A stretch of 64,000 nt of DNA. Source: Cupriavidus pauculus. Its GTDB lineage: Bacteria; Pseudomonadota; Gammaproteobacteria; Burkholderiales; Burkholderiaceae. The notes under the pieces were generated by a model. That model saw only the letters and a list, made by a program, of their open reading frames with translations. It ran no database searches and was not told the DNA's origin. Positions 1-1,251 of the stretch are shown piece by piece. The stretch's first letter is position 1. Every line of letters starts with the position of its first letter. Position numbers and translations under genes: made by a program. The DNA is taken from contig NZ_CP033970.1 of the NCBI RefSeq assembly GCF_003854935.1, forward strand, positions 1,488,001 to 1,552,000, written 5' to 3'.

Positions 1-173
1 CGTACCACCTCCAGCACCAGGTCGTCCTTGGCCGGGAAGTAGTAGTGGATGCTCGACGTCTTCACGCCCACCAGCTCCGCCAGGTCGCGGTAGCTGAAAC
101 CGTTGTAGCCCCGTTGCCGGATCAGCACGGAGGCGTGCTCGAGCAGTTGATCACGTACGGAATGCGTCTTCAT
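1..173 (-). CDS. TetR/AcrR-family regulator, N-terminal part (cut by window edge)
   Basis: Only the first 57 codons or so lie in the window; the rest is to the left of base 1. The visible part is a typical TetR DNA-binding domain: a helix beginning VRDQLLEHASVLIRQRGYNG, then FSYRDLAELVGVKTSSIHYY as the helix-turn-helix, then FPAKDDLV. It is the last gene of a minus-strand group that starts with the DGAR-repeat gene at 1000 and includes the 33-aa peptide gene at 350. TetR proteins usually repress their own operon and neighbours, so I infer that the palindromes at 1094-1111 and 1228-1245 are its operators. The ligand is unknown. Confidence 0.85.
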   Translation of the reverse strand, partial: MKTHSVRDQLLEHASVLIRQRGYNGFSYRDLAELVGVKTSSIHYYFPAKDDLVLEVV

Positions 174-248
174 TTCGGTTGCCCGCGCCAGCCTGGCGCC
201 GGACCCTCCTGTTATCGGTGCGTCGGCATCCTGCCCGGGGGGCAGGCG

Positions 249-350
249 TCAGACGGTCATCGTCTGCGCAACCAGCGATAGGACTGCGCCGCTGGCGAGG
301 CAAAGCACCACCCAGCCGCCCAGGATCAGGGCTGTGTCACGCAAGGTCAT
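249..350 (-). CDS. 33-aa single-span membrane peptide (hypothetical)
   Basis: A short open frame on the minus strand with a good Shine-Dalgarno sequence: GGAGTGACATC directly precedes the ATG. The product begins MTLRDTALILGGWVV and is almost wholly one hydrophobic segment (residues about 7-28) with a short charged N-terminus, as expected for a small inner-membrane protein. It lies between the DGAR-repeat gene (ends 416) and the tetR gene (starts 173), on the same strand, so it is probably co-transcribed with both. I recognise no family. The main doubt is whether it is translated; strand, ribosome site and hydrophobicity favour it. Confidence 0.55.
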   Translation of the reverse strand: MTLRDTALILGGWVVLCLASGAVLSLVAQTMTV

Positions 351-415
351 GATGTCACTCCAGAATTCGATGCCGGCGGCGTCCCGGGTTTGCCCGGGCG
401 CCACCGGCGCGGGTA

Positions 416-1000
416 TCAGGCCAGCGCGCCGTCGGTGTAGACGTCGGTCGAACGGGCGCCGTCGAAGTACGGGTTGCGCGGACCGTTGCCACGGGCGCCG
501 TCCAGGTACGGATCGACCTTGCGGGCCGGGCTGGCGGACACACCCTTCGTGTCCAGGCCGGCCACGGTGCGGGCACCGTCGGTGTACGGGTCGAACTTGC
601 CGATCTTGGCGCCGTCGGTGAACGGGTCGGCCTTGCCGATGCGGGCACCGTCGGTGAACACGTCGCGGCTGCCCACGGCGGCCACCAGGCCGTCACGGTT
701 GGTCACGCGGGCACCTTCGGTGAAGACGTCGCGCTGGCCGATGCCGGCCACCAGGCCGTCACGGTTCGTCACACGTGCGCCGTCGGTGTAGGCATCGCGG
801 GTGCCGATGCGGGCGCCTTCGCTGAACGAGTCGAACTTGCCTTGGCGGGCGCCGTCGGTGAAGGCGCTGCGCGGGTCATTGACGCGGTAGCTGTAGCCGT
901 AGACTTCGCCGGCCTTCTGCACGGCGGGGGCGGCCTGGGCGGCGCCAGCAACGAAAGCGGCGGCGAGGGCGGCGGCGGTAACGATGGTCTTGACGTTCAT
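416..1000 (-). CDS. Exported DGAR-repeat protein (uncharacterised)
   Basis: 194 aa. Residues 1-23 form a Sec signal peptide ending AGAAQA. The mature part carries ten copies of a short motif, [FY]-x-[DE]-G-A-[RKL], whose D/E-G pairs fall at residues 49, 61, 73, 95, 117, 129, 141, 167, 180 and 190. The core spacing is 12 residues, with 22 where a longer unit is duplicated. There is no Cys and no transmembrane segment after the signal. The start is supported by AAGGAGAGCATC before the ATG. The Asp-rich motif faintly resembles a calcium loop but lacks the usual position-3 acid. A second protein with the same period is at 16681-16992. Function is unknown; a periplasmic or secreted structural or binding role is inference only. 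Confidence 0.85.
   Translation of the reverse strand: MNVKTIVTAAALAAAFVAGAAQAAPAVQKAGEVYGYSYRVNDPRSAFTDGARQGKFDSFSEGARIGTRDAYTDGARVTNRDGLVAGIGQRDVFTEGARVTNRDGLVAAVGSRDVFTDGARIGKADPFTDGAKIGKFDPYTDGARTVAGLDTKGVSASPARKVDPYLDGARGNGPRNPYFDGARSTDVYTDGALA
647..778 (-). repeat. Tandem 66-bp in-frame duplication inside the DGAR gene
   Basis: Two adjacent 66-bp units (713-778 and 647-712) encode 22-residue units at residues 75-96 and 97-118. Both contain VTNRDGLVA and end in RDVFT[ED]G. They differ only at a few residues (GIGQ versus AVGS, E versus D), so this is a recent internal duplication within the repeat protein. Confidence 0.8.
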
Positions 1001-1093
1001 GATGCTCTCCTTTGCTCGGGCCGGCGATCCTGGTTCAGGGGCGGGTCGGGGGCCGATGTCTGTTTGGCGATATCGCGATCTTTCTTTGTTGCT

Positions 1094-1111
1094 ATCTACT
1101 GATAGGTAGAT
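1094..1111. promoter_or_regulatory. Palindromic operator-like site, promoter-proximal to the DGAR gene
   Basis: ATCTAC-N6-GTAGAT with perfect 6-bp arms, about 95 bp upstream of the DGAR start. It closely matches the second palindrome at 1228-1245 (both contain ATCTACT, then TAG, then TAGAT), so the two look like paired binding sites for one dimeric regulator. The TetR protein at the end of the same operon is the obvious candidate, by inference. Confidence 0.6.
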
Positions 1112-1119
1112 GGCGGGGG

Positions 1120-1215
1120 CTAAAAAAAAGACCGCTTCCGGTACTGACTATCCAACCTGTGATGCTTGGCTTCAGCGCTGTTCGCTTTGTCTTGCTGCGG
1201 CAGTGCGTCGTCCAT
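1120..1215 (-). CDS. Possible 31-aa leader ORF upstream of the DGAR gene
   Basis: Begins MDDALPQQDKANSAEAK just downstream of the promoter at 1223-1251 and ends in Ser-Phe-Phe. Its last codons are the T8 run that follows a short ACCG-GAAG-CGGT hairpin. It is hydrophilic, Lys/Gln/Ala rich, and similar to nothing I know. The ribosome site is weak (CGAG 4 bases before ATG). It may be a leader peptide whose end coincides with an attenuator, or simply untranslated leader. Confidence 0.25.
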   Translation of the reverse strand: MDDALPQQDKANSAEAKHHRLDSQYRKRSFF

Positions 1216-1222
1216 GGCTCGA

Positions 1223-1251
1223 ATATTATCTACTACTAGATAGATAAGCAA
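1223..1251 (-). promoter_or_regulatory. Sigma-70 promoter with operator in the spacer, reading into the DGAR operon
   Basis: On the minus strand: -35 TTGCTT (1246-1251), a 17-bp spacer, and -10 TAATAT (1223-1228). The spacer is almost entirely the imperfect palindrome 1228-1245 (ATCTAT...GTAGAT read on the minus strand). A protein bound there would block RNA polymerase directly, the usual mode for TetR repressors. The rest of 1001-1331 contains the second palindrome, a possible leader ORF and a T8 run; I see nothing else in it. Confidence 0.6.

What the first reader, a model, noticed from the sequence alone, without database searches (positions are those of the whole stretch)
1..1251. TetR-controlled operon for a secreted DGAR-repeat protein and a 33-aa membrane peptide
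Seen: DGAR gene, small membrane ORF and tetR lie in line on the minus strand, behind a promoter whose spacer is a palindrome (1228-1245), with a matching palindrome at 1094-1111. Inferred: one autoregulated unit that makes an exported 12-residue-repeat protein with a small membrane partner in answer to a ligand. I know of no described system of this composition.
Basis: partly seen in the sequence, partly recalled or inferred. Interest (0 to 1): 0.8.

Follow-up and report, generated by a model that had tools for sequence, protein, structure and literature searches.

The report
Stress-switch operon for metal-induced repeat protein
A small bacterial operon makes an exported repeat protein of a family known to be switched on by toxic metals, and its own repressor looks like a cysteine-based stress sensor that may both block the promoter and stop leftover transcripts at a fixed distance from a second binding site.

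Summary
In detail: on the minus strand lie promoter/operator O1, a hairpin with T-run, operator O2, the DGAR gene, a 33-aa membrane ORF and tetR. DGAR itself is not new. It belongs to the CopQ/CzcJ/MmsQ family of metal-induced exported proteins and, by gene order, is the counterpart of C. metallidurans mmsQ. Its control appears undescribed: one TetR clade, one operator (TATCTA-N4-TAGATA) and the membrane ORF travel with it across Cupriavidus. All 46 cassette TetRs compared have cysteine where NemR has its sensing Cys106. In Burkholderia and Paraburkholderia the same clade and operator stand before ohr and a hydrolase, and the published B. cenocepacia tetR-ohr-lipase genes rise with H2O2 and bleach. 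The likely signal is therefore thiol stress (oxidants, electrophiles, thiophilic metals). In 53 of 55 leader clusters a T-run ends 12-14 bp before O2, although O1-O2 spacing varies from 88 to 147 bp. This suggests that TetR on O2 stalls polymerase at the T-run and makes a weak terminator conditional. The geometry did not appear in a wider TetR sample. Binding, co-transcription, stimulus and termination are untested.

The parts
1246..1251 (-). -35-like hexamer TTGCTT of promoter P1
   Evidence: TTG at this place was a condition for collecting leaders, so its conservation there is by construction; seen without that condition
1227..1242 (-). operator O1, TATCTAGTAGTAGATA, inside the promoter spacer
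1223..1228 (-). -10-like hexamer TAATAT of P1
   Evidence: same place in aligned leaders
1120..1215 (-). 31-codon ORF beginning about where transcription should start; length and sequence not conserved, perhaps a relic of a tetR start after P1
   Evidence: Burkholderia tetR starts at the same place after P1
1131..1142 (-). short hairpin ACCG-GAAG-CGGT
   Evidence: 48 of 53 leader clusters have a perfect stem of 4 or more pairs there, 7.4% in shuffles
1122..1129 (-). run of 8 T, 3' end 13 bp before O2
1093..1108 (-). operator O2, TACCTATCAGTAGATA, in the leader
416..1000 (-). DGAR gene, 194 aa, signal-like N-terminus, CopQ/MmsQ-type repeat protein
249..350 (-). 33-aa single-span membrane ORF
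   Evidence: (median dN/dS 0.32)
1..173 (-). tetR, first 57 codons; complete (201 aa) in L009 1568-2173

Best explanation
This is an autoregulated thiol-stress operon. TetR dimers occupy O1 in the promoter spacer and O2 in the leader. O1 blocks initiation. Polymerases that escape run into TetR on O2 and stall with the RNA 3' end in the T-run, where a weak hairpin and the U-rich hybrid let them fall off. Oxidants, electrophiles or thiophilic metals modify the conserved Cys98, TetR leaves both sites, and initiation and read-through rise together. DGAR (exported, probably disordered, carboxylate-rich, MmsQ-type), the 33-aa membrane peptide and more TetR are then made, and the system resets. DGAR probably protects the envelope as a multivalent, cysteine-free, cation-binding polymer. 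Shown by sequence: gene order, operators, geometry, conservation, conserved Cys, family likeness. Inferred: binding, co-transcription, stimulus, conditional termination, DGAR and peptide function.
For: Operator enrichment and confinement. The 311-bp promoter-leader stretch (with the first DGAR codons) matches in 55 of 60 genomes of the genus, some matches covering only part of it. tetR within 500 bp downstream of 47 of 57 DGAR genes. HTH nearly invariant, and Cys at the NemR Cys106 column in 46 of 46 (two fragments of one split tetR dropped). NemR is among sequence and fold relatives. Same TetR clade and operator before ohr and a hydrolase in Burkholderia/Paraburkholderia; the B. cenocepacia tetR, ohr and lipase genes rise 5.9, 49.3 and 96.6-fold with H2O2 and 3.8, 20.3 and 11.3-fold with NaOCl (PMC2830190, passages). 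mmsQ and mmtQ are reported as metal-induced; mmtQ highly by Cd, Hg, Pb, moderately by Zn, not by Cu or Ni (PMC2864759, passages, there 'data not shown'). T-run end to O2 13.04 +/- 0.47 bp in 53 of 55 clusters against O1-O2 129 +/- 10.7. No conserved TTG before O2 and no conserved last T of a -10 after it, so O2 is not a second P1.
Against: NemR's Lys175 column is Arg in 46 of 46. A Cys at this place also occurs in solved TetR relatives of unknown function, so it does not prove sensing. In the B. cenocepacia study other ohr genes, next to OhrR-type regulators, rise as well, so induction alone does not show that this TetR is the sensor. Of 27 TetR loci outside the genus read from a phylum sample, 8 have an operator-like site and none has a T-run of 5 or more at 12-14 bp. 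The window hairpin has only 4 pairs and a standard terminator scan misses it. Leader clusters share ancestry. In L010 tetR has its own promoter with an operator-like site, so tetR need not ride on the DGAR transcript. DGAR gave no usable model (pLDDT 46).
Confidence: 0.6

Rival explanations
1. O1 and O2 work by DNA looping or cooperative repression; the T-run and hairpin are only the end of an ancestral tetR transcript kept by inertia.
For: Two operators 88-147 bp apart. Over all 117 pairs the spacings cluster at one helical phase (R 0.51 at 10.5 bp), though relatives are counted many times. In Burkholderia hairpins follow the tetR stop.
Against: Over the 30 distinct spacings the phase is weak (R 0.07-0.31), while T-run to O2 is nearly fixed and hairpins change sequence but stay in place (17 stems in 48 leaders).
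Confidence: 0.25
2. O2 overlaps a second promoter, with the T-run as its UP element; the DGAR gene is transcribed mainly from there.
For: An A/T-rich stretch lies at a similar place above O1. ohr is induced more than tetR in B. cenocepacia, as a separate promoter would allow. One leader (L064) has a fair -10 at O2.
Against: No conserved -35 at O2 and no conserved last T of a -10. In several other lineages the start codon is 17-26 bp after the operator, too close for a start point plus ribosome site (those loci were chosen by the T-run pattern).
Confidence: 0.2
3. TetR answers an organic ligand (quinone, lipid peroxide product, solvent) rather than thiol chemistry; metal induction is indirect.
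For: TetR C-terminal domains of this sort often bind small molecules (recalled); Arg replaces NemR Lys175.
Against: Cys98 invariant including the ohr-linked TetRs; the ohr-linked genes answer H2O2 and bleach.
Confidence: 0.25
4. The leader makes a roughly 100-nt small RNA ending at the T-run, and DGAR is expressed by read-through.
For: P1, hairpin and T-run define such a transcript.
Against: Leader sequence and short ORF poorly conserved; no Rfam family reaches its gathering score.
Confidence: 0.1

Closest known systems
MmsQ (Rmet_4908) and the CopQ/CzcJ/MmmQ/MmtQ/MmrQ/PrsQ family of Cupriavidus
   Same: Signal-like sequence, repeated (R)DxxTDG motif, found in the own genus and one other of 25 genera; same gene order as mmsQ (glyoxalase family, FAA hydrolase, DGAR, membrane ORF, tetR, Exo_endo_phos gene).
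   Different: The passages read report no TetR regulator, operator or 33-aa partner; PrsQ2 is under the response regulator AgrR.
NemR of E. coli
   Same: TetR fold; Cys aligned to Cys106; one relative locus has an old-yellow-enzyme gene after operator and DGAR gene (L226).
   Different: Arg in place of Lys175; different targets; a second operator inside the transcript.
Burkholderia tetR-ohr-alpha/beta hydrolase operon (BCAS0084-0086 type)
   Same: Same TetR clade, operator, promoter layout and T-runs before downstream operators.
   Different: tetR comes first; effectors are a peroxide enzyme and a hydrolase.
Repressor roadblocks (LacI, PurR, CcpA, CodY) and Reb1-type roadblock termination
   Same: A DNA-bound protein stops elongating polymerase (PMC10310618, passages).
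   Different: Here a hairpin and T-run lie at a near-fixed distance before the site; the passages read name Mfd, possibly Rho, as what releases the polymerase.

Membership tests
CopQ/MmsQ repeat family | signal sequence | tested here: inconclusive
   N-terminus MNVKTIVTAAALAAAFVAGAAQAA looks like one; no signal-peptide predictor was available
CopQ/MmsQ repeat family | RDxxTDG-like motif repeated with spacers | tested here: met
   10 DGA/EGA motifs; the pMOL30 protein at the czcJ place has the same motif
CopQ/MmsQ repeat family | restricted to Cupriavidus and Ralstonia | tested here: met
CopQ/MmsQ repeat family | metal induction | not testable with these tools
   reported for mmsQ in PMC2864759 (passages)
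TetR family | TetR_N DNA-binding domain | tested here: met
   PF00440 E 2.6e-11; AF2 model pLDDT 89, TetR fold matches
NemR | Cys106 | tested here: met
   Cys in 46 of 46
NemR | Lys175 | tested here: not met
   Arg in 46 of 46; its need is disputed in PMC8748444 (passages)
NemR | response to HOCl or electrophiles | not testable with these tools
   only the ohr-linked genes have reported induction by NaOCl
Intrinsic terminator | GC-rich stem followed by T-run | tested here: inconclusive
   stem of 4 pairs plus T8 in the window; scan with a 5-pair minimum misses it; 21 of 53 clusters have 5 or more pairs

The most novel reading that the evidence does not exclude
Repressor-gated terminator: a TetR bound 13 bp downstream of a T-run stalls polymerase exactly over a weak terminator, so one repressor controls both initiation (O1) and termination (O2). 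A bacterial counterpart of T-rich element plus bound-protein terminators, reused before DGAR, ohr and possibly other stress genes.
Probability: 0.4. Interest if true: 0.8.

Novelty: new variant of a known kind. Interest (0 to 1): 0.62.

Why it matters
The CopQ/MmsQ proteins are strongly metal-induced, confined to two genera and still poorly characterised (PMC2864759, PMC7563307, passages). This gives part of the family a candidate regulator, an operator, a likely stimulus and a conserved membrane partner, and links it to peroxide and electrophile defence genes. The near-fixed T-run-to-operator distance makes a simple, testable case for a repressor that also acts at a terminator.

Tried and rejected
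Rfam search of the leader: three matches, all far below gathering scores. Leader ORF as a regulatory uORF: start conserved in most leaders, but sequence, length and stop are not. Helical phasing of O1-O2: R 0.51 at 10.5 bp over 117 pairs but 0.21 over the 30 distinct distances; the pair list includes relatives and some pairs read from the wrong strand. AlphaFold of DGAR: mean pLDDT 46, not used for a fold search. Direct soft-metal binding by DGAR through Cys: 0 Cys, 0 Trp, 12 His and 18 Met in 8484 residues of 56 proteins. Universality of the T-run geometry: not seen in a phylum sample of this TetR (57 of 398 genomes have one at E<=1e-20; 30 loci read, 27 outside the genus). The scan of genome contigs used the exact 13-bp spacing as its pattern (114 stretches; 80 of 114 read, 69 of 80 with a TetR relative within 2.5 kb, 17 with an Ohr relative), so it shows where the module occurs, not that 13 bp is enriched. 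In one search one locus of 13, L216, was left out because its downstream sites lie beyond the 900-bp limit (a T-run lies 9 bp before one of them). The second DGAR genus (g24): 0 of 16 genomes have this TetR at E<=1e-25 (which holds no positive control of its own), and 1 operator hit against 6 control hits. Locus tag of mmtQ: Rmet_4187 assigned to L064 only by interpolating gene numbers between zntA (Rmet_4594) and DGA places.

Full report
What is there. On the minus strand of the window start lie, in order, promoter P1 with operator O1, a short leader with a 4-pair hairpin and a run of eight T, operator O2, the DGAR gene (194 aa), a 33-aa membrane ORF and tetR. The window starts inside tetR; the complete gene is 201 aa. 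O1 fills the 17-bp spacer of P1 (TTGCTT, TAATAT). O2 is an 11-of-12 match. The distance from T-run to O2 is 13 bp.

The exported protein is of a known family. No Pfam or NCBIfam model matches DGAR convincingly (best E 0.25 and 0.17). It has relatives in 57 of 300 genomes of the bacterial family searched, in 2 of 25 genera. One relative genome (G031) is C. metallidurans CH34, judged by an identical replicon length and hit position. [quoted passage not shown] PMC7563307 (passages) counts 21 copQ homologues in CH34; an HMM of DGAR proteins also finds 21 places there at E<=0.01. PMC7380067 (passages) reports loss of silver resistance in prsQ1 and prsQ2 deletion derivatives of a resistant mutant; these proteins are called CopQ-like there. 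The CH34 locus L062 has the window's gene order, including an Exo_endo_phos gene that fits xthA3 (Rmet_4910), so its DGAR gene is taken to be mmsQ (Rmet_4908). mmsQ1 (Rmet_5594) fits L063 and mmtQ (Rmet_4187) probably fits L064; these are inferences from near-identity and gene numbering.

The cassette is conserved. The 311-bp stretch from P1 to the first DGAR codons finds a match in 55 of 60 genomes of the genus; some matches cover only part of it. In 43 loci (3 of the window's own genome, 40 chosen from those matches) 57 DGAR genes all have an operator within 400 bp upstream, as expected from the choice; 47 have this tetR within 500 bp downstream, and 40 have the membrane ORF (38 with the narrower pattern). 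In a wider set, 77 of 126 distinct DGAR genes have a membrane-ORF match, one of them (L104) clearly spurious; 61 distinct 33-aa coding sequences, compared without gaps, give a median dN/dS of 0.32 over 1567 non-independent pairs. Six DGAR genes of the window's genome outside the operator loci (L012, L013, L014, L016, L017, L020) were in that test and have none. Three DGAR genes with the ORF have no such tetR downstream (L011, L060, L066), so the ORF goes with DGAR rather than with tetR.

The operator is specific. TATCTANNNNTAGAT has 190 forward and 177 reverse hits in 60 genomes against 4 and 6 for the reversed pattern. 25 of 26 loci read (of 29 returned) carry a DGAR frame. In CH34 the six forward hits are two at each of the three cassettes. 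The second genus with DGAR-type proteins shows no operator enrichment (1 hit, 6 control hits, 16 genomes) and none of its 16 genomes has this TetR at E<=1e-25.

The regulator. It is a TetR with a TetR_C_13-like C-terminus: below the curated cut-off in the window's protein, above it in two of three relatives scanned. Nearest solved relatives are 2g7s and 3on4, with NemR (4yze) also found by sequence and fold. NemR Cys106 aligns with Cys in 46 of 46 cassette TetRs, NemR Lys175 with Arg in 46 of 46. PMC8748444 (passages) shows that the Cys106 equivalent is needed for HOCl response in a NemR-based probe and disputes the Cys-Lys bond there.

The same clade elsewhere. In Burkholderia and Paraburkholderia the clade and operator precede ohr and an alpha/beta hydrolase (Pfam for unnamed relatives; annotated). 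B. cenocepacia shows the order too (L256). In PMC2830190 (tables seen as passages) BCAS0084 (TetR), BCAS0085 (Ohr) and BCAS0086 (exported lipase) rise 5.9, 49.3 and 96.6-fold with H2O2 and 3.8, 20.3 and 11.3-fold with NaOCl. That strain's record was not held, so orthology rests on gene order; other ohr genes next to OhrR-type regulators also rise in that study. In a Cupriavidus locus (L226) an operator and a DGAR gene precede an old-yellow-enzyme gene. In Achromobacter the operator precedes a DUF4148 small protein and then this tetR (L252, L253). Further loci have GST, SDR, OYE, F420_oxidored and cupin genes after the operator, but those loci were selected by the T-run pattern, and 80 of 114 were read.

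The geometry. Among 98 distinct leaders, 55 clusters were kept. In 53 a run of at least 5 T ends 12 (5), 13 (41) or 14 (7) bp before O2; mean 13.04, SD 0.47. O1-O2 distances in the same clusters have mean 129 and SD 10.7. 52 of 55 leaders hold one such T-run, one holds two, two hold none. A perfect stem of 4 or more pairs abuts the T-run in 48 of 53 (7.4% in shuffles), with 17 distinct stem sequences, so the hairpin changes while its place does not. O2 has no conserved -35. In Burkholderia-type loci chosen by TetR or operator, not by T-run, 10 of 12 with a downstream operator within 900 bp have a T-run (5 T, or T-rich with one A or G) 10-13 bp before one of them. Against generality, of 27 TetR loci outside the genus read from a phylum sample, 8 have an operator-like site and none of these has a T-run of 5 or more at 12-14 bp. 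That polymerase's front edge reaches about 13-15 bp ahead of the RNA end is recalled; one literature search for it found nothing. Roadblock papers (PMC10310618, PMC4132739; passages) describe repressor roadblocks and Mfd-driven release.

Not found in print. Searches for the repeat letters, czcJ, the Q-gene names, PrsQ, Rmet tags, TetR with ohr, and roadblock with terminator (listings, and passages of eleven papers) gave no description of this TetR cassette or of a repressor-gated terminator of this form. Only open-licence papers were searched, and the 2019 paper on PrsQ1/PrsQ2 was seen only as cited.

Verdict. A real, conserved regulatory unit around a known but unexplained protein family. The likely stimulus and the gated-terminator idea are inferences from comparison and need bench tests.

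Noticed in passing
L252, L253, L270 (Achromobacter): Operator followed by a DUF4148 small exported protein (Pfam in L252 and L253; by likeness in L270) and then the same TetR clade: an independent pairing of this regulator with another unexplained exported protein.
   Followed up: partly
L226 2596-4454: Cupriavidus locus with operator, DGAR gene and an old-yellow-enzyme (NADH:flavin oxidoreductase) gene in a row.
   Followed up: partly
L068, L070, L073, L078, L079, L084-L089, L092-L094: Two operator-DGAR-tetR cassettes one after the other; DGA-motif number differs between the two copies in most of them.
   Followed up: partly
L090 3008-3573: The tetR of this cassette is split into two frames, so the downstream regulator may be broken there.
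   Followed up: no
own genome, contigs C2, C3 and C4: More than a dozen further DGAR-type places outside the three operator loci, with varied repeat number.
   Followed up: partly
L231, L232, L240, L258, L309 (Legionella): The T-run plus 13 bp plus operator pattern follows a TetR relative in several Legionella species; no clear hairpin seen there.
   Followed up: partly
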